Origin: Norana najaformis
Taxonomy: Eukaryota; Annelida; Clitellata; Crassiclitellata; Hormogastridae
Direction of reading: 5' to 3'
Assembly (NCBI GenBank): GCA_964023275.1
Contig: OZ029914.1
Location: 49,368,530-49,432,529 of the forward strand
Length of the DNA: 64,000 nucleotides
Positions within the stretch are counted from its first letter, which is position 1. Each line of letters opens with the position of its first letter. The translations under genes and the position numbers were made by a program. Positions 7,034 through 52,461 of the stretch are shown here, piece after piece. The notes beneath the pieces were generated by a model, which saw only the letters and a program-made list of their open reading frames with translations, had not been told where the DNA came from and did no database searches.

Positions 7034-10000
7034 CGGCTATGAAAGATGAGAAAATTCCAATGGAGTGCAACACTAATGGAAGTGCCCCACTTAAATGGAT
7101 ATTACTTCTTCCCCGGTCATCAACCAAAGAAGGTGAGGAGATTTATAGTGGATACGGAGTCTCATCGAGTGCTACCTCCTATTGTGCCTTCCAGCCAGGC
7201 GAACCGGCAGTTGCTGGCCAGCACAACCTGGAAATCACTGCCGTGAAGGAAGCCGCAGGGCTTTACACATGTCTGGAACCAAGCAGTTTGGAGAAAAGAT
7301 CGGCACAACTCATAGTAATTGGTAAGTATTTATAGTAGAGATCTGTGTCCGTTCTTTGTTGTCGTTGTGAACAATTGTCGGCAAAACTTATGTTGTGTGT
7401 GGTATCATGTTTACCAAATCAATCCTTGAGAAAGGGAGAAATTTAAAGGCTCAAAGCTTGATTCGATTCATGCATACGTTTAGTCAATTATTTCGACAGT
7501 ACGACTTTAAAAGAAGATATCACATTCTCTTTTATTATGTCTCTGTCGGCTATGTTGGCAAAACTTGTGTCCAGTACGGTATTACGGACACTAAAGACAT
7601 GTCCAGAGATTGATAAGTTCGACTTGATTGTGCAAACTCTGATAAGCAATATCTTTCATGTCAGTAGTGTCAAAAGATTAGCATTTTCCTTTTCGTTACG
7701 CTCTGTGTTTCGAATTGGAGCTAACCTCTTCAGTTTTGCCTACTATTTTCAAGATGAGATACTGGCCCTCTAATCTAACCTATGAACTTCTAGGGCGCCG
7801 TTGTGTTAATCGGCAAAGCATCGGTCAGTGGTTGCTTCTAAACAAAATCGCATCCCTAAATCACAATCCATTGGGAGAAAACAAGTCGAGATCCAAGAGG
7901 CCCAGAGACCAAGACTGACTACGGAGGATAAGTAATCCGGAGAAAATGATACTTTAGCCCAAACCTAAACGGCAACACAGAATTCGCGGAGTATGCATAA
8001 GCAGGTAATTCCAGATTCTTGGGTCAGTGGTCGAGTAAAACCGGTAACTAGTACCGTTCTGGTATCACTTGAAGTTTGCGTAGGTTAGGTCTAATAGTAT
8101 CCGTTCATATAAATAAACTGGCTATGCATTGAAGTTGTTTGTTTTCTAGATTCTCCTCCAAGATGCTATTCGATATTCGGTGAAGACCATGTCAACATTT
8201 CATGTGTCATTGACTTTCATGGACACTGGCCTCCAGCGGTGGAGTGGAGGGAATGCGACATTTATGATGAAACGGTCATCAAAGATGATGTTACCAACTT
8301 ATTATATCCAAATGAGAGAGTTACCAGCACCCTGACAAGAAAGCAAAACGGGAGTAATAATGGCACCTGCTACAAAGTAACGTTCAGGTTCAGAGAGGAT
8401 GAACGACCGCTGGAAACCACTGCTCTTAATATCCCAGACTACAAACACACGCTTTGTTTCAAACACCCTCAGTGGCTCAATACCTCAGAGTGCAACAGAA
8501 CGCGAACTGATGACAATTTTGGCAGTAAGTACTCAGTTACGGAATTCGTGAATAGGAGTGATACTTTTAGTTGGATATGCATGCTTTTAAAGACAGTTTA
8601 AAGGTGAAATGTGCTTGGGTATAGGCCTAATTCTATGTAACATATCTACGTTTAGCTCTAGATAGTTTTCTAGATATTCAAAGATCTAGATAGCTACATA
8701 AAACTCCCAGTGAACTGACGGCTGTCCTAAAAGACAACGAAGCTTATATTGTGATATTATTGCCAATTTCGTATGGCCAGTCCTTGAACAACAAAAGTGC
8801 AGAAAATTAAGGTCTTAAGTGGGCCACGGTAGCCGATTGGTTAGAGCACATGGCTTGTAACGCAGAGAGTACGGGTTAGAGATTCACAGTTGTTCAGCGC
8901 CATCGATTGATGCGAGGTCGTTATATAGTGGCACTTAATAAATGCAGAAATAACAATGATAACTCCCGGCCTTAACTAACCATATTCTGGCACAGCTAAA
9001 AATGTGCACCAAAAAACTTTTTGAAGCTAGGACCGCTAGCTGCATGGATAGTGCAGTCCTTCGAAAACTGGTTTATTCTTCAGAGAAGCTGGGAAATGCA
9101 ATCAGAAGAGCTAGCGGAGTAATAGTAAGCCTGTCTGAGGAGATACCATAGAAGGAAAGCAATAGTTTGCCTGGAATGCATATGATAATTTACGATTCAC
9201 TTGAACACAACGCACTATTCATTGGTGACAGTCGCCTATGTTTGGATTTCTAGAATGGTCATTAAATGTAGCCAGTCTTTAATAAGAGAAATATTATTAT
9301 AATAGAGTTAGGCTGATTATTAATTTTAGATCCTACCAAAAATGAAGACCAGCGATTCTTGATAGCCGTTGCTATTTCGAGCACAATCACTGCGATCCTT
9401 TTGTGTGTGATCATAGCTATTATTCTGTAAGTTACATACAAACGATTGTACCCACACAAACGTTTTAATCTTACTGTACTTTGCAACACATTTACACCGT
9501 GTTCTAACTGTTCATTAAGACATTAAGAAAATGTTCCTCTCATAGACATGCATTATATATGCATCAATAATTATGTATAGGCTGTTAGTGTTAATTTTCT
9601 ATTAATCCCAAATGTAACGTCATATGTCTTACATGCGAATCATATATATGCTAAAATTCCCATTTGGGATTCAGATGTCTTAAATGGACATATGCCTTTA
9701 AGCGCGGGGCACAGTTCCCGATTGGTTGAGGCGTTCGGCTTGTAACACGAAGAGTAAGAAGGGTTCAAGCCTCCCTTGAGGCGGTTACTGTGAAGGTACC
9801 CCTCAGATTCACATTTACTAACCTTGCGCGCGCATTGAATGCAATATGACAATAGTAATAAAAATAATAATGACAACAATAATATGGTCCCAAATGGTAG
9901 GACATACGAAACCATATGGGAATGTTGTCGTATGGGCTTCATATGTTCTACATAGGGCGTTGCTAATTGGGGAACCTACAAGTTTGTAAATTTGGCGAAT

Positions 10001-11099
10001 TGTGATACCACAATATTTATCTCTGAATCAGCGGCAGATTTAGCTATAGGCGTGGGGGGACGGTTCGCCCCGGCGCCTCTATTGATTATATATGCCGGCG
10101 CCCCCGACTCCTGCATTATGGACCCCCGACTTCTGCATGATAGACTGCCAGATAATGGCGCCCCTCTGGAAATGCTCTAACCCCACCCACTCCCTCAAAA
10201 GCAATCCTGGAGCCGCCACTGATTTGAATGTTTGTATTCTCCCTCTGTGGTTATACAACGGTGCGATTCCTTTATTTTTTGTTGTTTTTTTAACCTAAAT
10301 CTCTTCTATATATTTTCTCATACTCATCTTCTTTATCTACAGGTACTTCTTCAAGTTCAGGAAGCCAAAGGATTCAGAAAAGAGAGCCAGACGTATGTAA
10401 TTTCATTTGGCGCATTTTACATCTCCATGCATGCTTGTGTGCGTATGTGTCTTTGGTTGTCTCGCAGTTTGTTTTGCAACGTTGCTATCTGGAAAAAACA
10501 TCAGAAGCTGCTTTATTAACTGAGGATCAACGCAGTTTGTGTTGCGAGCTTCTGAACTGAGCAATAAAAAATCCCTGTTCAGCAAAGCATGCAGCAAAGG
10601 CATTCTTTGACGCAAGTACTTCAGGCCTATGTTTGCAATCGCAATTGGCGTGGTACATGTATATTTGATTGATGTTTCAACACTGTTCCCAGTGATATAA
10701 CCCAATAGAACCTGACCTGAGCCTCGGGAAACTCTTATTCCCAGATTCAAACCTGGCACCCAAACTGAGCAAACACCTGACTCTTGCGGACTTGATTTGA
10801 TATAGCGCCGGTGAGTAAGATGATCTCTCTGGCGCAACTTTCGTGTAGAGCGAAGATTTTCGGAGAACTCTATCCGTTAATTCGGTCAAAAATATGAATT
10901 CGTGAGTATAAGTTGGTGACCATCAATGAAGTACGTGAGACAAGGTTGCTTGATTGTCATTGTACTAAGACCGCCCTAATTTTATAGATATCTCATCAAT
11001 TTCTAATTTCTATACATTACTTTAACAGTCTGCTGTGAAAGGTTTAACTCTATTGTTGTAGAAAGTCTCCTGACCAAAATAAAGAATGAAGGCCACTAG
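7034..11099 (+). CDS. Gene A: two-Ig-domain transmembrane receptor, first exon not found
   Basis: Exons read: 7034-7321 (Ig domain 1), 8150-8524 (domain 2), 9330-9426 (transmembrane), 10343-10392 and 11062-11099 (cytoplasmic, stop TAG). Domain 1 has PMEC, LKWILL and the classic EAAGLYTC before strand G, a V/I-set signature. Domain 2 has CYSIFGE, NISC and HWPPAVEW, with NIS and NGT glycosylation sequons. The membrane exon gives LIAVAISSTITAILLCVI. Extracellular borders are phase 1; the membrane exon ends in phase 2. Donors are mostly GTAAGT. The tail (LYFFKFRKPKDSEKRAR, then 12 residues) has no tyrosine motif beyond the juxtamembrane Tyr. The Ig-1 acceptor could instead be at 6942, but that breaks the phase rule. 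A signalling partner would be needed; this is inference. Confidence 0.68.
7322..8149 (+). other. Gene A intron, no recognisable content
   Basis: Runs from donor GTAAGT to acceptor TTTTCTAG. Short ORFs at 7395-7918 carry no known domain. Confidence 0.5.
8821..8965 (+). mobile_element. tRNA-derived SINE, internally deleted, in gene A intron
   Basis: Begins GGGCCACGGTAGCCGATTGG, continues GCTTGTAACGCAGAGAGTAC, then jumps to CAGCGCCATCGATTGATGC and ends GCACTTAATAAATGCAG. The middle part present at 12.28 kb is deleted. Confidence 0.85.
9702..9850 (+). mobile_element. tRNA-derived SINE fragment in gene A intron
   Basis: GCGGGGCACAGTTCCCGATT, TCGGCTTGTAACACG and GGTTCAAGCCTCCC (box B) are seen; the 3' part is diverged. 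An antisense leucine-rich ORF over it is an artefact. Confidence 0.75.
10029..10221. mobile_element. hAT-type MITE, 193 bp, in gene A intron
   Basis: Left end CAGCGGCAGATTTAGC and right end (reverse complement) CAGTGGCGGCTCCAGG match the common hAT terminus CAGTGGCGG. The 8-bp flanks CTCTGAAT and ATTTGAAT agree at 6 of 8 positions, fitting an aged hAT target duplication. The interior is GC-rich (GGCGCC, CCCCCGAC repeats) and non-coding. Confidence 0.7.
10640..10890 (-). repeat. LINE 3' UTR fragment, minus orientation, in gene A intron
   Basis: The minus strand carries a TCTTACTCACCGGCGCTATATCAA block shared in wording with 63621-63650, and a TTGCGCCAGAGAG block. The shared pieces mark a dispersed LINE tail. 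Confidence 0.5.
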
Positions 11100-11229
11100 A
11101 ACAGTCGCAACCACGTCAGCCAAGACGAACAAGGCTTCTAAATCTTTGTCAAACATTGATGAAGATTTCATGCAATGTAGCTTGATTAAGCATGGAATGC
11201 GTCTTCATGTACACTTAATATGATCTTAT

Positions 11230-13645: not shown

Positions 13646-13879
13646 TATTCTGAATTAAGCGCTAACTGTATCTAATGGATTTGAATCTCGAGAAACAGAA
13701 TATTAATAGTCTTTCTGATGGGTACTAGGGTTCCACTTAATATAGCTATCGAGTCTTACATGATTTTATATAAACATATATAGTCACAATTGGTTTGAAA
13801 ACAGACCTTATGTAAATGTAAACGCAGACGGTTTCTATAACGACCGTATGGCCTCCACCCTGCTCAGTGAATTGAGTAC

Positions 13880-17070: not shown

Positions 17071-20000
17071 ATGTGGAATTCTGGAATTGAATTAATGCTT
17101 TTCCACCAACTTGCAAAGATAGTCTGCTCATTTCTACTGGTAATTTCAAGTAATATATTTCCGGTTGGTGGAACAAAAATTGGTGAGTACTTTTATAGCA
17201 CTTGTCTTTTCGTTCAAAATATTCGCTTTTTTAATGAATGTCGTGCGCAAATTGCATTTTCAGGACTTTCTGTAAGCACATCCCATTAATTATTCTGACT
17301 TAGCACTGTCATAAGCAATTCATTTTCCACTATGATGGGATAGCACGATCGCAGAATAAAATTTTCTTTCGCGTTTGCTCTGATGCACGGTTCAAGGCAT
17401 CAGGTATGCTTCCAATGCAGTCCAGCATCTCTGCTTGCAACCAAAGATTTCTCAGTTGGAACTCTCCTAGCATTCACTTGATCATAGTTGTAATGACGAC
17501 AATTTCTTTAACATTGTCAGTAGCCAGCAACTTCTTGGGTGCTTTTAACGTTGGTTCTATAAGAGTTATAAAATAGACGGAGTTCAGTTGTTATTTTGAA
17601 AGCTAAATTACCTCCCACTTTAGACGACGTCACTAAAGTACTCCAGTGCCTCTGGAATCACCACACTTGTAAGGCCTATACAGTGATGTCAACAGCAACA
17701 GATAACTACGATAATTCTTAACGTATAAATATACATAGTAATCTGATGTGTTGGACGTAGCCATTGAAAAGGTGCAATACATTAATGATATGGTTACCGT
17801 AACGCAGCCATACGTTAAAAAACTTGGTTTATTTTATGACAAACAACTCATCAGTTAGGATTATCATTGAAATATAAGGAAAAGCATAAATTTTATATAA
17901 AAAACAATAGAATACATCATGCGAGTTTGATCGCTTAAACACTGCAGCAGTCAAGTTTCTATCAGTACGACGATTCTAAACACACAGAAATTGCAATCAG
18001 AGAATGACACATACATAAAATCACTATCAGGCAGGCACATAAATTTAGGCGTGTGTACTGAAGGGAAGATTTTGCCGTGTCCGTCTGCGTCGACTGAAGG
18101 ATTCACCGGTGAACACAAATCTTGGTTTCATTGCTTTGTGGCAAGCGGTGCTAGTATAATAGGCGTTTACTCTTCGGGGGATTAAAAGCCTTTTCACAGC
18201 ACTTGGGTTCTTGACAGTAACGGGACGTAACGAAACGATTATTTCTTTACGCGTATATTAACCGGTATAATACAACGTATTAACAACATTACAGCAACAT
18301 CAGAGTAAATAATTCGCTTCGGTTTTACCATCTCGAGTGGACCCCGTTTATGAGATACCGGGATGCCTAATGCGTTCAGCCGTTAGCGAATGCCCCTTCG
18401 CTTCCGCCCCTTGTTCAACCTTTTCCGTCTTCTGTCAATCACACTGGCCAACAGAAAAATTTTTTTTTCTTGTTGCCTTCGGTTTTAGAACTGTTCTTGG
18501 GGTAATTTTGGGCGCTGATTCATAAAATGTCATTGGATTGAGTGCATCAGGTCTAGTTTCTCAGATATCGTCGATTTTGTAAAGAAAACCCAGTCCACTC
18601 TTTAAACGATGTCTTTGACAAAACTAAAATGTCATAATAAGCTTTATTTATGGCTAATTATAATTCTTGCTGATTCATATAATGCCTACATCCTTATAAT
18701 GTAAAATCAGCATATCTTGCCGCGTGCTGAGATATTGCTGATTCAACGAAATAACTATTCCGTAGCCTACAGCTTACTCAGCACTAAATTCATGGCCTCA
18801 TTTAGAATTTATTTGTGCTTATACAGCATTTCATGGTTTCGAACTATGTAAATAGATTATGCTGAAGTCAGCATTTATAGCCTATATAAACCGCCTCCTG
18901 AAAGCTAGAGCAGCCGCAGTCGTCTTAGGGCATATTAAGAGTTGGTCGCAAGAACAATCTGTGAATGTGAACATTAAATAACTACATGTTCTTACTATTT
19001 TTTAGGTTAGTCACTTAATTCCTCAGATGCGAACATCCTTAAGGTTATGGCTACTTCCAGACGGAGCTGCATTAACCATCCAGACATATTCTGCTACATT
19101 TGTGGGGAATACACACTAAAGGCAAACAGGAAACCGATTTCTGAGTTTGTAAAAAGACCATATGTAGGTTATTTTGGTGTCAAACTTGGAGATCAAGATA
19201 AGCAATGGGCTCCTCATACAGTATGCAAAACTTGTATTGAACAATTGCGCCACTGGACAATTGGAAAGAGAAGCTGCCTGAAATTTGGTGTACCGATGGT
19301 TTGGAGGGAACAGATAAACCACTTGGACGACTGTTACTTTTGTATGGTTAATATCATAGGCATCAATCGAAATAATCGTCACAAGTTGTCTTACCCTGAT
19401 ATACCTTCAGCCAGGAGACCTGTTCCGCATTCGGATATTGTACCAGTTCCACCTTTTCGCGAACTACCTCAGCTCTCAGACGATGACACTTGCATGTCCA
19501 ATATCGGACAAGATGACGAAAGTGAAGAAAGTGGGGGCAGTGACAGTGATTTCCAATCAACTTCACACAGTGAACGTTTTGACGAAAAAGAGTTGAGTGA
19601 TCTGATCAGGGACTTAAATCTTTCCAAAGAGTCCTCTGAATTGCTTGCGTCCAGACTAAAGGAAAAGAATGCACTTCAGCCTGGAACGAAAATTACAATT
19701 TATAGAAACAGAGAAAAGGATTTGCTGCCATTCTTTACCGAAGACAACAACCTAGTATTCTGTAATGACATCAGCAACTTATTGAAGAAAATTGGTCTGT
19801 CGGATTACAGCCCAGATGAGTGGCGTCTTTTTATCGACAGTTCAAAACGTAGTCTGAAATGTGTGCTTTTAAATAACGGCAACAAATTTGGTTCTATTCC
19901 AATCGGTCACTCCACCAGGATGAAAGAAGAGTACAATGCCATCTCTTTAGTACTGGAAAAGATAAAATACAAAGAATATCAATGGGTAATTTGTGTAGAC

Positions 20001-21245
20001 TTGAAGATGGTAAATTTCCTCCTTGGTCAACAAAGTGGCTACACAAAGTATCCCTGCTTTTTGTGTCTTTGGGACAGTAGAGCCAAGCATGAACATTGGA
20101 CAAGAAAAGATTGGCCTTCGAGGAAAGACAAGGTGGTTGGAGCTCAAAATGTAATCAAGGAATCTTTGGTGGCACGAGATAGGATCATACTGCCACCACT
20201 ACATATAAAGCTAGGCCTGATGAAACAATTTGTCAGGGCTTTGAATAAAGAAGGTTCATGCTTCGAATACATAGTACACAAGTTACCAGGAATTACAATG
20301 GAAAAATTGAAGGCTGGAATCTTCGATGGTCCACAGATCAGGCAACTTATGAATGACCCACTTTTCATACCATCAATGAATGAAATCGAATCTTGTGCCT
20401 GGTCTTCCTTTGTTCTTGTAACTAAAAATTTTCTTGGCAACAAGAAGGCAGACAATTATGCACAACTAGTAGAGGATATGCTTCTTCATTTCAACAAGCT
20501 TGGCTGCAACATGAGCATTAAAGTCCATTATCTCCACAGTCACTTAGATCGCTTTCCAGAGAATCTTGGTGACTTCAGCGAACAGCAAGGTGAAAGATTT
20601 CACCAAGACATCAAAACAATGGAAAATCGATATCAAGGAAGATGGGATGCACACATGATGGCAGACTATTGCTGGAATATTATGCGCAATTGTTCCGGCA
20701 GATGCCACACTCGGAAATCGTACAAAAGGAGCTTCTTCGGTGTCGAATGACTTGAAATTTTTATAACAAACTTGTTCTGTTTGGTATCATATAAGTACAG
20801 TTTCAGGTACTACCATTTTCTTTTAAGTATTTGTATTATTATGTTTATTTAGTGTATCACATAATAAATTGAGCACTACATAATTATAGCTATAGCCTTA
20901 TGTTTTATGGGCGAGCAGAGGCAAGGACTGGTATATGGCATAATGTTCTATATCTCGAAAACTAGACCTGCTGGGAGAAAACTGGTGCCTTTTCTGGAAT
21001 CAGCAGGTCAAATATACCCAGAAACAGTTCTAACATTTGAGGCAACAAATTATGTGTTGGCCAGTGTCATTCCTCTGATCGGCGTCCTCTGCTTCGCCTG
21101 GTTCTCTCTTTCTCTCTCTCCCCCTTTCTCTCTCTCGATCCTCTCCTCTCTCTCTCTCTCTTCCTTTCTCTCTCTCCTCTGTCTCTCTCTCTTTCTATTT
21201 GTTTCTCTCTCTCTTTCTCTCTCTCCCCCTTTCTCTCTCTCGATC

Positions 21246-21283
<38 letters not shown>

Positions 21284-21821
21284 TCTTTCTCTCTCTCCCT
21301 CCCCTCTCTCTCTCTTTCTCTCTCTTTCTCTCTTTCTTTCTCTTTTTCTTTCTCTCTCTTTCCTTTTTCTCTCTCTCTTCTCTATATCTTTCTCTCTTCC
21401 CTCTCCTCTCTCTCTCTCTTCTCTCTCCTCTCTTTCTATCTTCTCTTTTTTCTCTCTCTTTCTCTCTCTTTTTCTTTCTCTCTCTCTTTCTCTCTTTTTT
21501 TCTTTCTCTCTCTCTTTCCTTTTTCTCTCTCTCTATCTTCTCTCTTTCTATCTCTCTCTTTTTCTCTCTCCAATCTCTTTCTCTTTCTCTCTTTCCTTCT
21601 CTCTCTCCTCTCTCTCCTCTCTCTCACTCCTTTCTATCTCTCTCTATCTCGTTCTCTCTCTCTCTTTCTCTTCTCTCTCTCCTCTCTCTCTCTTTCTCTC
21701 TCTTTCTCTCTTATCTGTCTCTCTTTCTCTGTGTCTCTCCACTCTCTCTCTCTTTCTCTCTCCTCTCTCTCCTCTCTCTCTTCTCTCTCTCTTTCTCTAT
21801 CCTCTGTCTCTCTCCTCTGTC

Positions 21822-21871
<50 letters not shown>

Positions 21872-22111
21872 CAATCTCTCTCTTTTTCTCTCTCTCCTCT
21901 CTCTCTCCTTCTGTCTCTCCTCTCCTCTCTCTCTCATTTCTATCTCTCTCTCTTTCTCTCTCACTCTCTCTCTCTTTCTCTCCCTTTCTGTCCTATCTGG
22001 TTCTCTTTCTCTGTATCTCTCCTCTCTCTCTTTCTCTTTTTTCTCTCTCTCCGTTCTCTCTCTTTCTTTCTCTCCTCTCTCTCTTCTTTCTCTTTCTCTT
22101 TCTTTCTCCCT

Positions 22112-22146
<35 letters not shown>

Positions 22147-25100: not shown

Positions 25101-28100
25101 GTCTGACAGACGCTTATATGAATTCTCTCCAGACCTTCTGCATTCCGGCTGTACTGCTAGTCGTCCCTGTCCTACTGACCTGCACGTTAGACTAGTTTTC
25201 GCCTGTGTCTACTTCTATTGAGCCGCTAGGCTCCTCAGAGATACCTATTCTGAGCTACCCGTACTTGCTCGCTACTGCAGCACAACTACTAATTATTTTT
25301 CATACTGCGGCTACTGCTTCGTCGTTGTTGCTGCTGTTGCTGGTGCTGGTGCTGCCTGTGGATTTCTGCTCGGGTGGAATCTTTGCTTAGATTGCCCTTC
25401 TAACCTAGTTCGCTTTATCTAGTCATGGCCTCCTGTATCGGCGGCCGACTTCTGAAGATTATAAGTTTCTTCTCAGAAATGGTCAAGGCAACATCTGTTC
25501 CTAATGTTTCACTGGCTAGTCTGAGCAACTGGCCGCTATATACCGAGGCAGCGCTTAAGAAGTGTAATGTACTACAATAGCATACTTACTTCCTTTGACT
25601 CTCTGGTAGTACTAAGAGAGTCTGAGGGTTTTAATTTGTTTTCCTTTCGTGTTTTTTGATTTTCAGCAAGGAAGAATGATTCGTCGAAAGGACAGCCAAG
25701 CAATATTGCCTTGGTAAATGGGCAAAACGGAAGCATTTGCTGCTATACAGACACAAATTATACACTTTTTTGGCGTTCATCACCTGATGGCAAAGGGATC
25801 GCCAACGGAAATTCAAAAACACTCGAAGGTTACAAAGTTGAGGAAAACCTACCAGGATACAATTTTCTTAATTTTACAGCTAACATTTCGTCGACTCCTA
25901 CAAGAATCTCTTGTTCGGAACCCAGATCTGGCATTGAAAAGAGCGCCGATGTGATCGTATTAGGTTGTTTTAACTGCATGCATTATTCCATTAGAATTTT
26001 TGCTGTGAACCTATTGACCATTATATATAGAATTCGCCCAAAATTGTTATTCTTTAACTCAATCATGCAGCGAATGTTTGTCTAGAGTTGACATTTGAGA
26101 TCCCCCTACAGTTGGAAAGCTAATATAACAATGGGATTTTAGGTCTAAGTAAATCCATGCATCTATCGATGAGATTAAATGAGTCAAGCATTCGTGAAAT
26201 GAACCGTCAATACCATATTGAATAAGAGCAAATAACACACGATATTGAAACTAACGAGGCTAAACTAAACGAAATAAGTAAACGATGGGCTCAAAAGATA
26301 CCCAAGACACAAAACAATTTAGATGTCCCTTCTAGGTTCACCTTAAAAATTGATCGGCATTTATGGTATATGTTTATAATCGCAAAGTTTGATAGCGTCA
26401 TTTCAAGAGAAAATGCTCAGAAGTATACGAGACAAAGAGAAAATTTCGCTTCTTCAATTAAAATGTGTTCGAAACTTAACTAAAATTGGTCCTTTTGTGT
26501 TTTATTGGCAGATTTACAAGTTCGTTTAATACTAAAATGCAAAAAAACGTCATTTATGTCCAGAAAGTGCATATAAAGCCAAAGTTCAAGCGAGAACAAT
26601 GCACCTGTGCACAAAATTCTTGATATAGAAGCGTATTAGGATAAATGAACAATTATATTACCATATCTCAAAGGGTATATTTCATAGTATTTGACAAAAC
26701 CAGCAAGTTCTATGCATGCTAGATAAAAGGTTACAAATGCCCAAGACAAGAAATACATAAAACTTAACAGCACTCATTTTTTTGCATTAAAATGAATGTG
26801 AATATAGGTTGCTTCATTCGCGAACGCGCGTTTCAATGTTATCGTTTTAATGAGCTCGCTCCTAATGCAACTAGGACAGCTTATCTGTTGCTAACAAGAG
26901 ACTGATTATATATTTTTGCAGATTCTTTGGACTGCAAGGCAACACAGACAGAAGACTTTATCAACATAACGTGTTCAGCCAATTTTCGTGGTAACTGGCC
27001 ACCATACTTTGAATGTACGCCAATCAACAGCTCACATCAAACTAATTTCACAAACGGATCTGCAGATGGTCTCCAGAGAGTTATCACTAAAGTGCAGATA
27101 CCGTGTAAACAAGCTTTCGGTGAAACAGTTTACACGTGTTCTGTTAATTTCAACAAAACTGCGAACATTCCAAAAGCAACTGCTACAAACATTCCGGAAC
27201 TAGACTGGTCATTGTCACTGAACAGTAAGTCAAACAGTTTTTAATAGGGTTAATGACTCGGGATGTTTCAGAAAGTAAGCTTAGTCTTGGAGATTTATCC
27301 GAACAGGCGAGCATAAACAACCCATGAGAAAATCATTTACGGTTGTGTCGCAGTCTTGTATGAAAGTCACATATCTATCATGAATAATGAGAGGGAGACA
27401 GACAGACAGACAGACAGGCAGGCAGGCAGACAGACAAGCAGACAGACAGACAGAGAGATATTAACACGTCAGATTATCATAAATTATAATCAGTAATTCA
27501 AACATGTAAGTGAGCATAATCGATTAACAAACACATAAACAAAACACTGCCTTAGAAAATATCAACTTAAGAGAGTGGTGTATGAAATAAAAAGCACTCT
27601 ATTCATGCACATATCATGATACTTCAGGCGGTTTCTTCCCCTAGAGCAGTGGTATACAATAAATGATCAACTGCTGATAAGTTTAAATTAATTTATTATA
27701 CATCATTAAGTGATGTTTTGTCGTCTATTGTTTAGATGCATAGCCATTTTGCATACTGTTATATTTTTTGGCATATTGTTAAGGCAACTCTTTGTTGGTA
27801 ATAGTTTGAAATCAATCAAAAAGGTTTGCTAGAGGCATTGGGTTAATTTTTAATTGTAATTTATATGAAACAGTGTCGGAATTTGACAACTCAAAGAACG
27901 ACAACAAGAATGACACTGGAATAGCAATTCAGTCGCACGCAGGCCTAATTGTTCCCATAGTCATAGTTGTATTTGGATCAGCATTGACTACAGTCCTACT
28001 CTTACTCTTCATACTGTGAGTAATAAAAACGAAATTATGAAAGTTGGCGTGTAATTCATAAAACAATCATTTCATCGTTTGTTGCAATTAAGAGGCCGGG

Positions 28101-30040: not shown

Positions 30041-30042
30041 TT

Positions 30043-39924: not shown

Positions 39925-42162
39925 ATGACCTTTCCGTTTTTCATTGGATGTTTGTTATTTTCAGATTTCGACAAGTCTACGCCAAGTGTGTTTCAAACAG
40001 CCTTGCAATTTTTGGTTTCGTCACATTCGTATCCAATGGGTAGAGTACGTACTGTACAAGCTTAGGAATTAACCTACATAACGCAGGGAAACAAATCATG
40101 AAAGTTTGTTTCTCTAAAACATTTAATGTTTTTTTAGAATTCTTTCTCACTGAATAGGCATGTTGTCCTCAGAATTTATTTATCAGGCAAAGTTTCTGAG
40201 AAAATGTACCCAGTGTTATCTTAAGAAATGTACCAAATCATGTAATTGCACGCAGTTGCAATGCACTAAAATCGGAGTGTATCTAAGTTGCAAGAGCTAC
40301 TCTAAGAAATGCCCAATAGTAGTTAGCCAGCAAACTTGGACTTAAAATTTTTTCTCATTTGTTTATATTTTGGTGAAATCTTTCACAATGTTCATAACTG
40401 ACTTTACCGAGATTGCTTGAAAAAGTTTGAAGTGAAAGGTAAATATACATCTGCGTTTATAATTATCATGTCATGCTGTGAAATGCCATCAATCAAGAGC
40501 GCTGAGCAATTGTGAGTGAAGGACTTGCTCAAGGTCCGTAGACAGTAACCGTCTATGGGTAGGCTTGAACCCGTACTCTCCGCGTTACAAGCCGAGCGCT
40601 CTAAGCAATCGGATATCGTGCCCATATTTTGCAATAGACTGCCAGAAGTATATAGATGGATCTGTACAAATATAGGAAGAAAGTGGTTCATTTTTTCATT
40701 CATTCAGACAGGAAAGCAGACAGATAGTTAAATGCTCATACAGTCGTTCATTCATTCATCATTCATTCATTCCTTCTTTCTTTCAGTGAACAGACTATTA
40801 CCTTGTTTTAGAAGCCTTTGCTGACTTGTATGATAATCCACTGAACGAGTCTTTCAAAGTTGGAGAGGATGCAGCATTGAGGTGCCGCAGCAACTTATCT
40901 GTTGACATATCCTGGTTTTCATACACCCCCGATCGAAGTCGAGACGTTACCTTCAATGGAAAGAGGATTAATAACAAGTCTTGTTCAAACTGTGTTCTTA
41001 ACCACACACATGAACACCAATGGGATCTTCAGTTCAAAGCTGAAAAACACACGCGAGATTAGATGAATGCGTGGAACCAAGTACTGATGAATCAGTAGTG
41101 ACATCAGTGACAGTTTTCGGTGAGTGGGTGTTTACCTTGTGTGCTTGCTTGTCTTGGTTTCATGGCTTGTTCTTTACTTCCATCCTTCCTGTCTTCCTTT
41201 CTTTTCTTTTTTCTTTCTTTCTTCCTTCCTTTTTGCTTCCTTTCTGCTTCCCTGCTTCTTGCTTGCTTCAGTCCTTTCTTCCTTCTTTCATTCGTTCACT
41301 CATTCACTCACTCACTAATTCCCTCATTTAATAATCTACTACTGATCACATTTTTTGATGTTTCAGTTTCTGCAATAGATGGTGACCCTCTTTGTTATGG
41401 AGAAAAGGCTAATGGCATAACGAATCTAATCTGTTCGGTCATTTTCACCGGTGAGTATCGTCCAGTTATACAAGGGGCACATCTGGTTGGCCAGAGGATC
41501 ATGCTGCTCAGCGAAAATGTTACCAATCAAACGCTAACCAGTATTCTACTGATACTTGAAAGCGCTGGCTATCATAACGCAACATATCTTGGTATTACGA
41601 CGTTCAGAGAAAACAAAAGACCTAAGATGTTACTGGTAAAACATTCCTAATTTCGAATATATATGTCGTCACATTTCCAAGGAGAAAGGCGAGTCTTTAT
41701 TTCAGTCCATCCATCATTTATTCAAATTATCATCACAAGCCACGGCTAAGAAATGAAGTCCCTAACACTTCGTACTCACGGCTGTCACTCTGGTACTATT
41801 CTTCTGTGGTACATTACAATTTATTTATTCATTCATTTATTCATTTAAACACTCATTAATTCATTCTCAATGCACAACATATTATCTTGTTTTAGACGTC
41901 AAACTTGAAGGGCACGTGCACGTAATACAGAGTTGCAGTACCAACATGAATGTGAATATATCCATATTATACGAGCACTATGATTATTTTTCTCTGTTAT
42001 CTTACAATTCTTCAGGCTGAGGGACTACAATTGCATAAAATCATTGAAAGCTATCAATTTTGTTCATTCAGCAAAACAAACCAAAGGAAAAAATTGGATG
42101 CCGTGTATTGTTTCGATCGCTGTTTCGATGTTGGTCGTTGTTACAGCTGTTGCATGTTTATT
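39925..42162 (+). pseudogene. Gene C: two-Ig-domain receptor, frameshifted
   Basis: Exons read: 39925-40039 (leader, MTFPFFIGCLLF; an in-frame ATG also at 39841), 40812-41119 (Ig 1), 41367 to about 41640 (domain 2), 42072-42162 (membrane: WMPCIVSIAVSMLVVVTAVA). Ig 1 has ALRCRSN, ISWFSY and, after a break, ECVEPSTDES, parallel to YTCLEPSSLEK in A. Between KHTRD and ECVEP one base is lost, so the frame meets TAG at 41060-41062; the frame then resumes in the +1 register. Domain 2 (LCYGE, LICSVIF, TTFRENKRPK) lacks the WPP motif and a phase-1 donor; the only nearby donors are GTAAAA (phase 0) or GTATTA. Membrane exon borders (phase 1 in, phase 2 out) match A and B. Probably a pseudogene; a sequencing error or a null allele is the alternative. 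Confidence 0.62.
40470..40625 (-). mobile_element. tRNA-derived SINE in gene C intron
   Basis: The minus strand has GGGCACGATATCCGATTGCT, GCTCGGCTTGTAACGCGG, GGTTCAAGCCTACCC (B-box) and CCTTGAGCAAGTCC, then CAGCGCTCTTGATTGATGG. Confidence 0.86.
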
Positions 42163-43215: not shown

Positions 43216-43890
43216 ATGCCAAAGAAATTCAAAGGCGAGAATTCGAAGGCAGTAGAGGCAAGGGTTCGTAAGGCTACACAGAAGGATGAAGAGGAACAGC
43301 GTAAACAGAAACAGTTAGAAGATGAATACTGGAAGGAAGATAAACATGTTCTTAAAAAGCTTCAGAGAAAAGAAGAAAAACAGAAGAAGAAGACAGAGTA
43401 GCTAGAGAGGAAAAAGGAGGCACAGAAGAAACTGGATGAGGGGCTTGCTGTTCTAGCGTCAAAGTCAGGCGGCAAGGCAGCACCTCCCCAACTATCTCGG
43501 GCAGAAGTCGAAGTTCATCGACTCAATGTTGCTGATGCGGAAAAAGGGGCAGTGGCTGCAACTTCTAAAGTCAGCTTTCAAGAGCAAGAGCCTGAGATCG
43601 AAGAGAACGTCAACCGTATTGTAATCGAGGGTGATCATGCGTGCATTGTGGATGAGGCGCTTAGTGTGCTGAGTGTTAAAGACGAAGTTGACTTGCATCC
43701 AGAGAAGCGAATGAAGGCAGCATACCTGGCGTTTGAAGTGAAAAACCTTCCGATATTGAAGCAGGAAAATCTCAAAAACTTACGGTTGTTACAGCTGAAG
43801 CAGCTGCTGAAGAAGGATTGGGCAAAATCACCAGAGAATCCTCTGAATCAGGCACTGGCAGCTGCTGCTGCTGTCGATGCCAGCAAGTAA
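43216..43890 (+). pseudogene. CCDC124: Processed pseudogene of CCDC124
   Basis: An intronless frame of 224 codons plus stop, near the usual CCDC124 length, begins MPKKFKGEN and holds LEDEYWKEDKHV, RKEEKQKKK, a coiled-coil basic N-half, then EENVNRIV, ALSVLSV, HPEKRMKAAY and LSQLKQ-like LLQLKQLLKKDW with the C-terminal SPENPLNQ. CCDC124 (yeast Lso2 relative) is a conserved ribosome-associated protein. Codon 62 is TAG (43399-43401), in frame; no frameshift occurs, and the frame simply continues beyond it. A 350-nt 3' UTR ends in an A-rich tail near 44244-44270. Lack of introns plus the tail indicates LINE-driven retrocopying. With one stop only, it is recent. Confidence 0.9.
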
Positions 43891-45555: not shown

Positions 45556-45662
45556 CCTGTGCGTAGGCCGAGTCAGATAAAACTTACAAGGAGCTGTCAG
45601 GATTGGAAGGAGTGTAGGCTTAAAATTGAAGATAAACAATATGCCATGTTGAAATACCCGAT

Positions 45663-48600
45663 ATGAAGACAACAACGCTGATCAGATTCACAGTTTCTTT
45701 CATACAATTGTTCTACGGTTAGTATTGATAATATTAAGGTCTAAGCTTGTAAAGAATTTACCAGAGTAGAATAATTGGGTTGTGTTAATTTTGATCATTG
45801 GGTGGCAACGTAGTTAAAGTTAACATATCTGAAACATTTGACCTTTTAGACAATAAAATCTAATATAACCACTCCAAATGGAATCAAGCGATGGTTTAAC
45901 AAAATCTAGTCAGGCCGATATGCTAACTTAAACTTCAAAAATCACCCTAGACTCAGTCTCCATTACCCTCACAATAATTATAATTCTCGTTTTGTAGAAG
46001 GATTATTATTAGTAGCAGCAGTAGCATCGGCAGCAGCAGTAGTGGTAGTAGTAGTAGTTGCAGCATCCTTCATGATTTAACGACGCTAAATGGATACTAA
46101 GGGCCTTTGACGTTGACTCACATCACCACGCTTTTGTGAGGTATTAGAGGCCGCTATATTAGCTATGTTAAGTGTCAAGACGAATGGTTTAGAAAAAGTT
46201 TAACTGTATCCAACCATAGTGTTAAACCACTCCTTATTCACCAATACTATCATATTCAACTAGTGTACTAGTGTCATCTCATTGCCTCCTCTGTTTGTAC
46301 CTAAAATTAGAATCGATCTTGGTGAACGAGCTTTCTCAGTTGTTGTACCTAGATTTTGGAACTCTGTTCCAGTATCTGTTCATTCTTCTCAGTCGCTTTT
46401 GTCATTTCGTTCCCAACTTAAGACTTACCTTTTTTCAAATTGCTTCCCAACCACAGGCTGCGTCTTTTGTCTTAGTGGACTGATATTCTGGATATTGACC
46501 TGATTACGGCTTGGTTTTGGTGCGCCGTCGGTTGATGCCTTGCGCATTAGATACCGGCGCGATAGAAGTTACTAATCTAAACACATCCATACATACCGCA
46601 CATATGAAACCCCATCTGTAGGCAGAGTTACTATTAAAGGATGCTCCCATGGATGACGTCAATACGCTAGACTAAGAATCAGTAAAGAGCCCACAAGAGA
46701 GATTGGAAGTTAGCTCCTCATCAGGTGTAACCCGTGAGACTGATGTTATTACGAAGATCAGTCTGTAAGTAGATGTGTACATTACACTCCAATTGTGCTG
46801 AAACTACTCATCTAATTGGTATTCTTCTGGCCTCCTTTATTGCAAAATCAAGTCAGTCGCGATGAATTATCGAATTTGAATATTTCAGTTGGTACCCAGG
46901 GGCTATTAACGCAGAAACCAAGAGATAATGTGTTCGCTCTTCTGCATAGCACAGTGGGGTTGAACTGTCCCACCGACTTAAGTGGACCCATAAATTGGGA
47001 GTTTTCGACAAATGGTTCCAACATATATTCCTGGATCTACCTGAATTCGATGATGATCCAAGCACATGAGTCAAGATACAAGATCGACTCAACTAATGGA
47101 AACTATCGTCTTATAATCGAATCCCTGGATTGGTCATATGCAGGAAGATACAAATGCACAGACGATGCTGGCCTTGGACAATCGGCAATTTCACAGCTCA
47201 CAGTTGTCGGTAATATCACAATTATAATCTTATAGAAGATAAGGTTTTCCTTGTGGGGTTTGGATATGGAATAAAACAGATAATGTCGGAATAATGCAAA
47301 CCTGAGGATAAGTCATAATTCACTGAAAAAGAACAAGACATAATAGAACATATTAAAACATAATAGAACAGAGCACAGCATAGTGATGTAGAACATAACC
47401 GAATAGAACAAAACATAATAGAACAGAACATAATAGAATGAAATCGGATGAAGTGGAGAGCAGTGGAATGAATAGATGAGTGGATAGAAATAGAGTAGAA
47501 TACGGTAGAACCAGAAAGCATATATGAAAGCTGCATACTAGAAGAATGTAAATTAGATCCACCCAGAACACGTAAAGCTGAATCTATACTTTAGTGTACA
47601 CAAAGGTGGCAAATATTGATTCCGTACAGTTCTTCACAAATAGTTTCCTTTAATAATAGTCTTAATCTTTTTGTGTTATGACTAAATTGAATTGCAACGT
47701 AATTAGATTGATGTTTCTAATTTGACCTTAACATTATATATAACAGTTTATGTTTCCCACGTTATACAGATCCGAGACCAAGGTGTTTTCACGATCTTTC
47801 ATCAAACCAGCCAACACGACCTCCATGTTTCTCAAGTTTTTCTCACTGCTCATTTTACTACTGGGGTGATGCAGTGCCGACCTTAGATCTGTTGAAATAC
47901 GTCTTCAAGCGAAACACAACAGCTGACTACAGTACAACAGAACTTCATAAGAATGCTAAAACAGTCAATGTCACTTTAAACCAACCGTGTGAGAAAATAA
48001 ACGAGACAACTGAAGTCACAAAAAGCTCGACAAGTGATGCCTGTTCTGCATGCGTTTGGCGTAAGTGTGTTAAAATTATATCGTATAAGGCCATTTACAC
48101 ACAGAAAAACAAATTAACTTGAAGTAACCTAAGATTAATCGTATTATTTGTAATCGCAAACGGTAAGCTAATATGGAATTCCGGGCGACATTGTCAGTGG
48201 AACACTGTTGCTCTTTTGGGGTTTAGATAAATTGCTTCATCACAGTTTGGGTCAAGAACAGTTCCGGATCGTGGACAACCAATAGGCAAATAGATGTGCC
48301 ATAATTGTGTTTTGTGAAGACGATGATATGGTCGCCTTCAACTTAGCGTGGAAGAGATTTCAGTAAATGGTGCTTAATAGTGCAGGGAGAAAGGTGTTTG
48401 GAGTCGAGACTCCGGCTGTTTCTGGTGCAAGAAGCGCAGAAGTGGAGCAATGGTACCCTTAAAACTTAACTTATAGTTGACATTGCTGCTGCACTACAAC
48501 AATAAAAGATATATCCACTAATCTATTCTGATCTAATCTGAGGGCGACTGTAGCGCGATTGCGATGACGATGAAGGCATCAATTCTGGTTGTTGTAAACC

Positions 48601-51600
48601 AAAACTGCCCCCACAGCAAGGTCAAATGTAGGAAAAATGAAACCCACATAGTGATATTGCCATATTGACTTCGTATGTCCTGTCCTGCATATGACGTTGC
48701 TGTTACTTGGTGCGCTTGCCAAAATCCAGAATGATTGTGTTTAATGTCAACTAAAGGGTAATGGCATCAAATACACTGATTCACTTGTTGTTGTATGGTA
48801 TGGTTTTTGACACATAACATGTTACAGATTTTACTGGCTTTCATCGAGGCCAATTTTAGAAAGCATGTTGTTAGAGTTTCTTTGGTAAATTATAACCCAT
48901 AGTGAACTACTTTTTATACGGATATCATAAAAGAGAAGTTTCCAATCACGTTACAAACGACGTTTCGTTATGGTAAAGTATGCGATGTTGATTGTTTTTT
49001 AACAAGTCGGCCAAGTTTTGAACCTCCTAAACGTAATCTGAAATTGACAATTCATTGTTAATCCCTTTCTTTCATGCAGATTACCTGCTGTGCAGTTGCT
49101 GTTGACTCTCAGGCTGTGTCAAATCTTTTGCGAACAAACCATCTACACCAAGATAATGACTAATGACTATGTGATAACCACGTTTAACAAATGAAGTTAA
49201 CTGTTATAATGTTCGTAGTGACGCACTATACTACTGACAAAAAATCACCCAGTACTGACGAAGCTGTCACGACAGTGTACAAGATAACATTAAATCACTC
49301 CACGAAAGTTGAATTGTTGTCGTTCACTACTCCAATCGCCACAAAGATAATGTTTCAAAGCGACCAAAACACTAGAGATATGACTTCAAAAGCAAATGAG
49401 ATGAATGTTTTCTGTGGCTTACTTTTCTGCTATGGTGAGGTACAGTTGTAGGTAAGCCGGTACAGAATATTCAGGCAAAATCCAACGAAACTTACCGAGA
49501 ATTAACCATGCCGAGTTCTGATAATGAAAGCTAAGATTTCCGGATGATACTGGAATTGAACTATGAGTGATGTTTTGAAATGGTTTGGTTTCAGAGTTGG
49601 TATAAGTTCACAGAAGATTTGAAAAAGTGAAAAGATTTCTCAATGATGCTGATATTGTGACAGAGAGATTGATAATTGGCTTTAGTTTGGGATGAGTATA
49701 GTTAAAAATTAATAGAAGTTTTGCAAAAGTTCTGAAAAGAAAAAAAAACAGATTTAGAGATAAATATTAACAGATTTATTGGCAATGATATAGAGAGCGG
49801 CATTTGGAATTGGATTGGGATCACCATGGCTACAAGCTCAGAGAAGTCTAGCAAAAAAATGTTTGCTTTTAGACGTTTTTTGTATCTGGCGAGAAACGAA
49901 CAATTCAAGTTAGAGCCAATAATTGACCTATAGGCCTACATAAGACAATGTATACATAGCCAATAACAATAGAATGGGAAGCTTGTGCTGCTATAAAAAT
50001 CTACGAAAAGGAAAGTGTTTTACATAATTTTAGCTCAATATTCTGTTTGCATTTTGCTTTGCACCGGAAAATAACAATAAACATTTTCAGAAACCTAAAA
50101 CTAACTGTACACATAAGATCATAGAAAAGGAAATCATTTCAGTTTTTCGAACTACCGAATTCAGGCACGTCATGGTATAAAACTAAAGAGAAACCAGTCA
50201 TCAATATGTATGCTTTTCCATTAGAGCCAACAATATCTGTTTACAGTGGGTGAGGAAACTTTGTCAAGGAAATAACAAAACTTCCAATTCGTTGTCCCTC
50301 TTAACTAATAGTTACTGTTGGGTATTTAAATATATTTACTTCATTTGTCATTTCTAAATGTAAGCAATGGTGGCAAATATGATTGGGCGAATCAGTTATG
50401 GCTGTAACCTCGATTGAACGAAATGATTGACTTAATAATGAGCCTTGCCCTTCTGCACAGCACCTGGGCATTGTGTGAAAGAATAATACTTCGTCAAAGA
50501 AATGGTAATTTCTATGGTTATTACCATATCATCGTCACTGTCATGACAGTAATAATCATGACCACTATCACCGATATCGCCATCGTAAATAATCACCTAT
50601 GACATTCATCATAATCTTCATCACAATCATCATTATCATCATCAACGTTATCGTCTCGTAGTCGTTATCCTCGCAATATTAGTGAGTTTGAGTAAACATG
50701 CCTCCATAATTTGGTTAACTAGTTCCGTTATGAATCAGCAAAGAGTTTTTTTGGCCTGTAGAGCAATTATTCTGCCTTGTGTCTCTCTATTCGTTTCAGA
50801 TGGCATGGTAGACTGCGCAACGAAAATCCAAGTCCTCGGTGTCTTAGTTTCTCTGGCTGCTTTTGTCCTCGTCGTCCTCAGTGTGTACATTGTGTATCTC
50901 AAAAGAATTATTACAAGTAACGATCTTACTGGTTTACCAGTTGATAAGACTGTAGAGTTTGCATATAATATTACGAATAAACTGCTTTATTCGCTAATTC
51001 GATTAATGTATGTGTAGGGTGTATTTTTCCTCAAGGAAGACTCGTGTTATTATGTAGCGGATACAGAATTTGGGGTCTGGCGCGAAGCCCACAAAGGAAG
51101 CTTAAAGCATTGACACGATTAAAGAATTTGTATAGCATTTTGTGAACGTTTACTGTTAGTATTCTAGAACAGAATAGTAAACCCTCAAGGTAAATGTTCC
51201 AAATCAGGGTTGGATTTGTGAAGTTTTGGGAGGTTGAAATTTAGAATATGAAATCAGTGGGTTCAAAGGTGACAAGATGCCGCGGATGAAGAGATGCGAA
51301 TAGGGCTGCCAACCGTCCCGTATTCACCTGGACGGACCCGGAATCGGCCTTGGGTGTCCCGTGTCCCGGATTGATCCCAAATTGTCCCAGAATTTGATGT
51401 AAATATCCACTTCACCGAATGTTGTTCTTCTTTTCGCACAATAAACTCGAACAGCCGGCTTTTAACAGGTTTTACAGAGTGACCATAGAATAGAGGGTAG
51501 TTAGATTAGCAGACCCAATAAATGACATCTGCAAATTGCATGCATCATGGATATATATATATGAATTTCGCTCGTGCTAGGCCCTGAAGTTTGGTTGGTT

Positions 51601-52461
51601 AGTGGAATTTAATAAACGTTTTGCTCTTGAAGTTGATTCAAATTTTATATTTAGGCCACTTGTCTCTTGATAATTTGAGTCAAATCATTTGACTGTAATT
51701 TTTAACGACTATTTGCAGTAGATCCCACATTAGGCTGACGCAACATTCGTTACATACAGTGATGTGGACAGGGTAAATTGGTACTGGCATATCGAGTGAC
51801 TATGTGGGCGTTCCGGATTGGCAGAATCAAGTTGGCAGCCCTAGATGCGAAGGTCCGAATGTTTTACAAATACGGCTATGAAATGGTGGTTTTATATTTA
51901 TCTTCACACAATTGCTGTGATAAATGTTCAGTCTAAGGTTTGCAGTAGTGGCGCTTAAGTTTTGTTGTTTTACTTGTTGCACTTGTAATGTTTTGCCATT
52001 ACGATACTGACATTACCTTATATTTGCCATTGCAATGCACTGTATTGTCAATTAAACTTATTTTGAAACTGTGGCGCTTTCTTTTACTAATTAGCATTAT
52101 TATTGTGAATTTACCAGATTTGAAAGGCGGAAACGACGGCTCTCCTTCTGCTCGTTCTTGTTCTGGCAGCAGTCCGCCAGATAACCAGGGATACGAGTTC
52201 GTTGAAGGAGACTTCAATGACGCATCTGCAGATGCAATGATTGAGGGCAACTATGACGCACTGGGTCACCGTGGACCCCACAAGCCATGCGTCTACGACC
52301 GACTGAAGGGATCGAAGCAGTCGACCAACAGAGCAACGGTCCGTTCAGTCACAGCAGAAGAAGAAAGCCAAACATCTGCTGGTGTCTCTTTGGTTACTAC
52401 TGAAACAGTAAGCAGAAGAAAGTCACAAGATAAAGACAATTACCTTATGTTGGTGCAGTAA
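45663..52461 (+). CDS. Gene D: complete Ig receptor with ITAM-like tail, 375 aa
   Basis: Exons 45663-45717, 46889-47209, 47770-48060, 50800-50916 and 52118-52461 join, all in phase 1, into 375 codons ending TAA. Residues 1-19: leader (TLIRFTVSFIQLFYG). 19-125: V-like Ig with GLNCPTD, INWEFS and the classic SLDWSYAGRYKC then LTVVG. 126-222: divergent second domain with nine Cys-bearing positions (PRCFHD, PPCFSSFSHC, QPCEK, DACSACVW) and sequons NTT, NVT, NET. 232-256: membrane helix (VLGVLVSLAAFVLVVLSVYI), then KR stop-transfer. Tail 257-375 has Tyr287 (YEFV), Tyr307 (YDAL), Tyr321 (YDRL) and Tyr370 (YLML). YDAL-x10-YDRL resembles an immunoreceptor activation motif with a slightly long spacer. 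Predicted plasma-membrane receptor signalling through Src/Syk-type kinases (inference). Unlike A and B the tail is one exon. Donors GTTAGT and GTAATA are non-optimal. Confidence 0.75.
46265..46565 (+). mobile_element. LINE C-terminal tail and 3' UTR in gene D intron 1
   Basis: The plus frame 46282-46440: LGERAFSVVVPRFWNSVPVS then SFRSQLKTYLF, the CR1/L2 LINE C-terminus, followed by ATTACGGCTTGG and GATGCCTTGCGCATTAGATA. Confidence 0.85.
47338..47445 (+). repeat. ACATAATAGAAC minisatellite in gene D intron 2
   Basis: At least six short units of ACATAATAGAACA with variants. Ser/Cys-rich antisense ORFs here are artefacts. Confidence 0.8.
48061..49218 (+). other. Gene D intron 3, 5' part, unassigned
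   Basis: No repeat or domain recognised. Confidence 0.4.
49219..49434 (+). CDS. Candidate optional stalk exon of gene D
   Basis: The 216-nt open segment runs from a phase-1 acceptor (TTCGTAG) to a phase-1 donor (TATG|GTGAGG), so including it keeps the D frame and adds 72 residues. It is Thr/Ser/Lys-rich (HYTTDKKSPSTDE, ITLNHSTK with an N-x-S sequon, SFTTPIATK) and ends with FCGLLFCYG, fitting a glycosylated membrane-proximal stalk. The acceptor has a poor pyrimidine tract, and an ATG-initiated ORF spans the same frame from 49191. Could be a decayed exon or chance. Confidence 0.3.
49435..50799 (+). other. Gene D intron 3, 3' part, unassigned
   Basis: AT-rich, with an ATCATC/CATCGT imperfect repeat at 50525-50660. 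No domain-bearing ORF. Confidence 0.4.
51301..51843. mobile_element. hAT-type MITE, copy 2 (gene D last intron)
   Basis: Perfect 13-bp terminal inverted repeats TAGGGCTGCCAAC and an exact 8-bp target duplication GATGCGAA (51293-51300, 51844-51851) identify a hAT-type non-autonomous element of 543 bp. It is inverted relative to the copy at 45033. Confidence 0.88.

What the first reader, a model, noticed from the sequence alone, without database searches (positions are those of the whole stretch)
7034..52461. Tandem family of two-Ig-domain receptors built from phase-1 exon cassettes
Seen: four same-strand genes with the same exon order and phase (leader, Ig 1, divergent domain 2, membrane, tail). 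Domain 1 ends are alike (YTCLEPSS, SCSEPRS, ECVEPST, YKCTDD, each closing with V(I/L/F/V)G at the splice). Domain 2 differs strongly between copies. Family knowledge: clustered, fast-diverging Ig receptors with phase-1 exons are typical of immune or allorecognition loci. Inference: this is part of a larger recognition-receptor cluster in an invertebrate.
Basis: partly seen in the sequence, partly recalled or inferred. Interest (0 to 1): 0.78.

Follow-up and report, generated by a model that had tools for sequence, protein, structure and literature searches.

The report
Huge cluster of Ig-domain receptor genes
The window holds four neighbouring genes for membrane receptors built from immunoglobulin domains, one of them apparently broken, and they are a small part of a very large, fast-changing receptor gene cluster that probably serves recognition of microbes or of other cells in an animal that could not be identified.

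Summary
The observation mostly holds. A domain-2 profile ranks genes 1-3 first (3.1e-12, 8.3e-11, 2.7e-4). Best in the reversed window: 0.95 and 0.19. V and D2 exons of genes 1, 2 and 4 fit symmetric phase 1-1 cassettes.
Corrections: gene 3 is frame-broken, a tail was found only for gene 4, and domain 2 is itself a divergent Ig domain. Of 20 sampled local relatives, 18 also carry a third Ig exon or a Cys-rich stalk.
The larger cluster is real. V, D2 and third-domain searches of the 608-Mb genome gave 150, 150 and 148 hits (at most 150 candidates scored), mostly on contig 2; hits chain into 128 gene-like units in C2:46.8-50.6 Mb. Parts of the window block recur twice downstream.
Some tails carry paired YxxL motifs. 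All 62 paralogue pairs compared have dN/dS below 1. Immune or allorecognition function is inferred; the host is unidentified and no transcripts were seen.

The parts
6995..7321 (+). Gene 1, V-type Ig exon (phase 1-1, 327 nt; start chosen by eye)
   Evidence: V profile from outside loci E 1.6e-11; exon limits
8150..8524 (+). Gene 1, domain-2 exon (divergent Ig, phase 1-1, 375 nt)
   Evidence: D2 profile from outside segments E 3.1e-12; 150 scored hits in own genome, itself included
9330..9426 (+). Gene 1, membrane exon (phase 1 to 2)
   Evidence: hydrophobic segment, splice signals
25667..25963 (+). Gene 2, V-type Ig exon (phase 1-1; weak donor)
   Evidence: V profile E 0.028, fourth-best hit of the window; weak similarity to gene 1 V, E 0.009 in a window-only search
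26922..27224 (+). Gene 2, domain-2 exon (phase 1-1)
   Evidence: D2 profile E 8.3e-11; paralogue C2:48732444 72%
27874..28015 (+). Gene 2, membrane exon (phase 1 to 2)
40812..41119 (+). Gene 3, V-type Ig exon with broken frame (308 nt; start chosen by eye)
   Evidence: V profile E 5.8e-4; stops in frame
41367..41647 (+). Gene 3, domain-2 exon, shortened; 3' limit uncertain (end given is the end of the open frame)
   Evidence: D2 profile E 2.7e-4; partial partner C2:49544738 80% over residues 38-82
42072..42162 (+). Gene 3, membrane exon (phase 1 to 2)
46889..47209 (+). Gene 4, V-type Ig exon (phase 1-1)
   Evidence: V profile E 1.3e-21; Pfam V-set 5.6e-4, below curated cut-off
47770..48060 (+). 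Gene 4, domain-2 exon (phase 1-1), Cys-rich, very divergent
   Evidence: open reading frame kept in paralogue L033 at 57% aa identity; 7.2 bits to D2 profile
49188..49451 (+). Gene 4, possible Ser/Thr-rich stalk exon (uncertain)
   Evidence: frame kept in L033 at 59% aa identity
50800..50928 (+). Gene 4, membrane exon (end uncertain)
   Evidence: start
52093..52461 (+). Gene 4, cytoplasmic tail with YEFV, NYDAL and CVYDRL motifs (start approximate)
   Evidence: 3 paralogues in own genome; tail comparison

Best explanation
The window is a slice of a multi-megabase tandem array of type I membrane receptors. Shown at sequence level: an N-terminal V-type Ig domain, then a rapidly changing C2-like Ig domain 2, then (in 18 of 20 sampled relatives, but not detected in the window) a third Ig domain or a Cys-rich stalk, a single membrane span and, in some members, a tyrosine-motif tail. 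V and D2 are encoded by phase 1-1 exons. Inferred: copies arise by tandem and segmental duplication, diverge fast, exchange exon cassettes and decay; the variable face of V (and D2) binds a variable ligand on microbes, parasites or other cells of the same species; paired YxxL tyrosines recruit SH2 proteins to signal. Genes 1, 2 and 4 look intact at the exons seen; gene 3 is probably dead.
For: Profile hits and reversed control. V in 20 of 20 fetched local loci (they were chosen by V), D2 at E<0.05 in 19 of 20, third Ig in 12, stalk in 6 (the D2, third-Ig and stalk profiles were seeded from some of these loci). V then D2 also in 5 of 6 loci from other clusters. Own-genome counts and clustering. 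dN/dS 0.23-0.94 in 62 of 62 pairs. Among 7 related genes the V data reject the D2 tree (AU 8.6e-5) and the D3 data reject the V tree (0.021); D3 falls into two groups 40-48% alike whose V domains are 70-83% alike across the groups. V variation among these 7 is highest in residue windows 11-20, 31-50 and 81-90, and windows 51-80 are near invariant (descriptive). Tail YxxL-x10-YxxL in gene 4; 21 matches of a type-A tail, query included, all in this cluster.
Against: No expression, ligand, population or functional data. No domain-wide dN/dS above 1. The ITAM-like pattern also occurs 60 times in 69,426 residues of open frames, many not genes; the type-A tails miss the ITAM spacing, and the type-A tail profile does not find gene 4's tail. 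Four of the six cross tests of the trees were not significant, and the D2 tree is poorly resolved. Genes 1-3 have no recognised tail. Large Ig families also serve neuronal wiring or gamete recognition.
Confidence: 0.62

Rival explanations
1. A neuronal or developmental cell-surface code (adhesion and wiring), not immunity.
For: V + C2 + C2 ectodomains are also typical of adhesion molecules (recalled, nectin-like); dN/dS below 1 in 62 of 62 pairs.
Against: Rapid turnover, frame-broken or stop-bearing copies and segmental duplication fit recognition arrays better than wiring genes, which are usually conserved (general knowledge).
Confidence: 0.17
2. Gamete or reproductive recognition receptors.
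For: Fast paralogue divergence.
Against: Nothing specific; hundreds of copies is more than gamete-recognition families usually have (recalled).
Confidence: 0.08
3. Mostly a graveyard: a decaying expansion driven by repeats, with few expressed genes.
For: Gene 3 frame-broken; 4 of 21 type-A tail matches and 2 of 3 gene-4 tail paralogues with stops; mobile-element frames and long simple repeats in the window.
Against: 147 of 148 third-domain hits and 148 of 150 D2 hits have no stop inside, although such hits do not show frameshifts between exons or lost exons; dN/dS well below 1 in most pairs.
Confidence: 0.08

Closest known systems
Hydractinia Alr family (allorecognition complex, 41 genes; PMC11999971, passages read)
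   Same: Clustered Ig-superfamily receptors described as having V-set and I-set domains; ITIM/hemITAM motifs reported on candidate genes (PMC12065747, passages read).
   Different: Here far more gene-like units in several clusters; domain 2 has its own motif; no allorecognition phenotype known; no direct sequence comparison made.
Botryllus fester co-receptors, FcoR (PMC12065747, passages read)
   Same: V-type Ig, C2-type Ig domains, membrane span, long tail with Yxx(I/L/V) motifs, encoded in a recognition locus.
   Different: FcoRs carry a sushi domain between V and the two C2 domains; the direct sushi search here was unanswered.
Pearl oyster clustered Ig-domain genes in haplotype-specific regions (PMC9646362, passages read)
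   Same: Clustered, expanded Ig-domain membrane proteins proposed to serve immunity.
   Different: Those often carry fibronectin III; here V-D2-(third Ig or stalk). No direct comparison.
Biomphalaria PTC2 polymorphic single-pass membrane genes (PMC7494358, passages read)
   Same: Clusters of fast-diverging single-pass membrane proteins at a parasite-resistance locus.
   Different: PTC2 genes are reported to contain no known domains besides the membrane segment; these contain Ig domains.
Vertebrate NITR/DICP/KIR-type Ig receptor clusters (recalled)
   Same: Tandem, fast-evolving Ig receptors with tyrosine tails.
   Different: No homology test done.

Membership tests
Immunoglobulin superfamily, V-set | V-set domain match | tested here: met
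   Relatives over the Pfam cut-off in own genome (150 of 150 listed matches) and 2 of 2 V exons tested. In the window gene 4 matches at 5.6e-4 but below the curated cut-off and genes 1-3 do not match V-set; they join only by the family profile.
Immunoglobulin superfamily, C2-like domain 2 | Ig match of domain 2 | tested here: inconclusive
   D2 exons of relatives: Pfam ig 22.3 bits vs cut-off 21.8 in 1 of 3, the others below cut-off. Gene 1 D2 model pLDDT 68.7; best Foldseek hits Siglec-10 and CD160 at E 0.01, none at E<=0.001, other folds mixed in. Gene 4 D2 model uninformative, pLDDT 47.
ITAM-bearing receptor | Yxx[LI]-x(6-12)-Yxx[LI] in the tail | tested here: inconclusive
   Met in gene 4 (spacing 10) and in an open frame of L014 (11); not met in the type-A tail of L016 (spacing 13); the pattern is common by chance.
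Hydractinia Alr-like allorecognition family | Controls fusion or rejection between individuals | not testable with these tools
   No genetics or individuals available.
Hydractinia Alr-like allorecognition family | Homology to Alr domains | not tested
   No Alr sequence was compared.
Botryllus FcoR | Sushi domain between V and C2 domains | not tested
   PF00084 search did not complete.
FREP (Ig + fibrinogen) | C-terminal fibrinogen domain | not tested
   No fibrinogen search was run; gene 4 ends in a membrane span and tail.
Biomphalaria PTC-type TM1 genes | No known extracellular domain | tested here: not met
   V-set and other Ig matches.

The most novel reading that the evidence does not exclude
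The array is the animal's principal polymorphic self/non-self locus: hundreds of V-D2-(D3) receptors whose symmetric phase 1-1 exon cassettes are exchanged between neighbours in the germline (and perhaps joined in combinations at the RNA level), giving individual-specific receptor sets that signal through ITAM-like tails.
Probability: 0.15. Interest if true: 0.85.

Novelty: new member of a known kind. Interest (0 to 1): 0.57.

Why it matters
Very large arrays of Ig receptors outside the well-studied systems bear on how animals without antibodies recognise microbes or each other. This one has a recurring cassette architecture (V, variable D2, third Ig or stalk, sometimes a tyrosine tail) in several clusters of one genome, so expression, allele diversity and exon exchange can be tested directly. 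It is not a new mechanism: clustered, fast-evolving Ig receptors with tyrosine tails are already known, for instance in cnidarians and tunicates (PMC12065747, passages) and vertebrates (recalled).

Tried and rejected
Tried: Pfam on the raw window exons gave little, so relatives were fetched and family profiles built. AlphaFold of gene 1 D2 was moderate and Foldseek weak, with no hit at E<=0.001: consistent with an Ig-like fold, not decisive; gene 4 D2 failed. Rfam at gathering threshold found one tRNA only. PDB sequence search with a relative's D2 gave nothing significant (best E 0.098). Host identification: molluscan haemocyanin (PF14830) and tunicate-type GH6 (PF01341) gave no match, but both answers warn that the controls did not ring, so they do not show absence; my working guess of a mollusc is withdrawn. 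A genome search with gene 4's D2 did not complete.

Rejected: 'unrelated single-copy genes' for genes 1, 2 and 4; 'domain 2 is a non-Ig domain' for the family as a whole, on modest evidence. Positive selection on whole domains is not supported; the one value above 1 (stalk exon 1.27) rests on 6.5 synonymous changes.

Searches for a description in print: (search listings seen) showed none of this cluster; as the host is unknown this does not show that it is unpublished.
Full report
1. Where it is. The window is C2:49368530-49432529 (+) of a 608-Mb, 17-contig genome without a name. The host could not be identified: no match to molluscan haemocyanin or to GH6, with warnings that neither result shows absence.

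2. The observation. Stop-to-stop frames and splice signals give four genes on the + strand with V-type Ig exons at 6995-7321, 25667-25963, 40812-41119 and 46889-47209, each followed by a domain-2 exon and a hydrophobic exon. I fetched 20 stretches around Pfam V-set hits of the local cluster, built a V profile from them and a D2 profile from 20 D2 segments outside the window, and searched the window in six frames. The four V exons are the four best V hits (whole-frame E 1.3e-21 gene 4, 1.6e-11 gene 1, 5.8e-4 gene 3, 0.028 gene 2), and the D2 exons of genes 1, 2 and 3 are the three best D2 hits (3.1e-12, 8.3e-11, 2.7e-4). The next D2 hit of the window, at 54550, has E 0.042 and looks like chance. 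In the reversed window the best were 0.95 (V) and 0.19 (D2). The D2 segments outside the window were themselves found with seeds from genes 1-3, so only the V test is fully independent. In a direct search of the window the D2 of gene 1 matches those of gene 2 (E 1.6e-6) and gene 3 (4.8e-5).

3. V and D2 exons of genes 1, 2 and 4 fit symmetric phase 1-1 cassettes, 6 of 6, with exon limits chosen by eye. Gene 3's V exon is 308 nt with stops in frame, and its D2 is shortened, so it is probably a pseudogene. Only gene 4 has a recognised tail. Domain 2 is probably a divergent Ig domain (1 of 3 relatives' exons above the Pfam cut-off); in gene 4 it is Cys-rich and barely recognisable (7.2 bits), and its fold was not resolved.

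4. The family. In the 20 local loci V was present in all (they were chosen by V), D2 in 19 of 20 at E<0.05, a third I-set-like Ig exon in 12 and a Cys-rich stalk exon in 6 (the D2 profile was built from these loci and the window, 7 of the 12 third-Ig loci and 5 of the 6 stalk loci supplied seeds). No third Ig or stalk was found in the window. In six loci from other clusters V was followed by D2 in five (C2 at 39.8 and 2.3 Mb, C4, C11, C16); the C12 locus had a third-Ig-like hit only. Genome searches, query copies included: V-set 150 matches (150 of 910 candidates scored), third Ig 148 (150 of 225 scored), gene 1 D2 150 (150 of 361 scored), gene 2 D2 17 at E<=1e-8, gene 3 D2 2, gene 4 tail 4, type-A tail 21, all at C2:47.68-49.19 Mb on the + strand, 4 with stops. 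Of the V, D2 and third-Ig hits, 103, 132 and 126 lie on C2; the window's cluster (C2:46.8-50.6 Mb) holds 27, 52 and 79. Chaining hits in the order V, D2, D3 gives 128 gene-like units there and 386 genome-wide. Many units are single exon hits, some may be other Ig genes, and the searches were capped, so these are rough figures. Within 10 kb on the same strand, third-Ig hits have a V hit upstream in 32 of 148 cases against 8 downstream, and a D2 hit upstream in 27 against 3; D2 hits have a V upstream in 13 of 150 against 3. This is the expected order in incomplete lists. Opposite-strand counts were 11 and 0, 2 and 1, 8 and 2.

5. Segmental copies. Gene 1's D2 has close copies at C2:49519398 (81%) and 49689962 (84%), and one at 41760957 (70%). 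Gene 4's tail has copies at 49568868 (64%, four stops), 49721532 (77%, one stop) and, in part and on the other strand, 48747825 (63%). A partial gene 3 copy lies at 49544738. So parts of the window's block recur in the same order at two places downstream; gene 2's best copy lies elsewhere (48732444), so the blocks are not complete repeats. Gene 4 and its copy L033 align over V, D2, a possible stalk exon, membrane exon and tail.

6. Evolution. For all pairs with dS<0.6 (29 V, 23 D2, 10 D3) dN/dS is 0.23-0.94, below 1 in 62 of 62. In gene 4 against L033: V 0.56, D2 0.51, tail 0.51, possible stalk 1.27 on few changes. For seven related genes the V data reject the D2 tree (AU 8.6e-5) and the D3 data reject the V tree (0.021); V did not reject the D3 tree (0.13), D2 rejected neither (0.077, 0.063), and D3 did not reject the D2 tree (0.078). 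The D2 tree itself is poorly resolved (support 27-58). Their V domains are 70-88% alike, while D3 falls into two groups 40-48% alike. Exon exchange or gene conversion is the simplest reading; uneven rates remain possible. V variation among the seven is highest in residue windows 11-20, 31-50 and 81-90 and lowest in 51-80, which fits loop variation but was not tested statistically. In a tree of V domains gene 4 and its copy group with the type-A genes.

7. Tails. Gene 4 ends with YEFV, NYDAL and CVYDRL; type-A genes have YEMV (one YGMV), EGYxSL and PxVYxxL; an open frame in L014 has YDSI, NYAPL and IYNQL. The first two tail groups were not joined by profile-profile comparison (probability 2.5%), and the type-A profile does not find gene 4's tail, so their similarity is by eye. 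The ITAM spacing is met in gene 4 and L014, not in type A, and the bare pattern is common in open frames (60 in 69,426 residues).

8. Mechanism. Shown: ectodomain, membrane span and tyrosine tail in gene 4 and some relatives; tandem and segmental duplication; fast divergence; some broken copies. Inferred: variable ligand binding, phosphotyrosine signalling, role in immunity or allorecognition. The closest described systems are Hydractinia Alr, Botryllus FcoR, pearl oyster Ig clusters and Biomphalaria PTC regions (PMC11999971, PMC12065747, PMC9646362, PMC7494358; passages read).

9. Verdict. A real, large, ordinary-in-kind but unusually big receptor array, of which the window shows four divergent members, one apparently dead.

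Noticed in passing
window 43402-43890 (+): Single-exon open frame matching CCDC124/Oxs1 (Pfam PF06244, 4e-31), perhaps a retrocopy between genes 3 and 4.
   Followed up: partly
window 56392-57903 (+), with 57904-58317: piggyBac-like transposase (PF13843, 5.8e-75), 503 aa open frame; the same frame goes on after a stop for 137 codons.
   Followed up: partly
window 19011-20750 (+): Open frame of 579 aa without any Pfam match at E<=0.01 between genes 1 and 2; possibly mobile-element derived (by eye).
   Followed up: partly
window 28558-29400 (-) and 53776-54639 (-): Open frames that look like the C-terminal parts of LINE-type elements (judged by eye; only weak DUF6451 matches).
   Followed up: partly
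window 21103-22146 and 2578-3097: Very long degenerate (TC)n / (GA)n tracts, about 1 kb and 0.5 kb.
   Followed up: no
window 5993-6820: A 375-bp unit tandem repeat, 2.2 copies, 83% matches, just upstream of gene 1.
   Followed up: no
L011 5013, L012 6307, L035 1323 and 3243: These loci carry two V-type exons before D2 (V-V-D2; L035 in reverse-complement coordinates).
   Followed up: no
G000 C4:28.6-29.1, C11:2.15-2.36, C12:14.7-14.9, C16:12.7-12.8 Mb: Further V-set clusters outside contig 2; V then D2 seen in single loci of C4, C11 and C16.
   Followed up: partly
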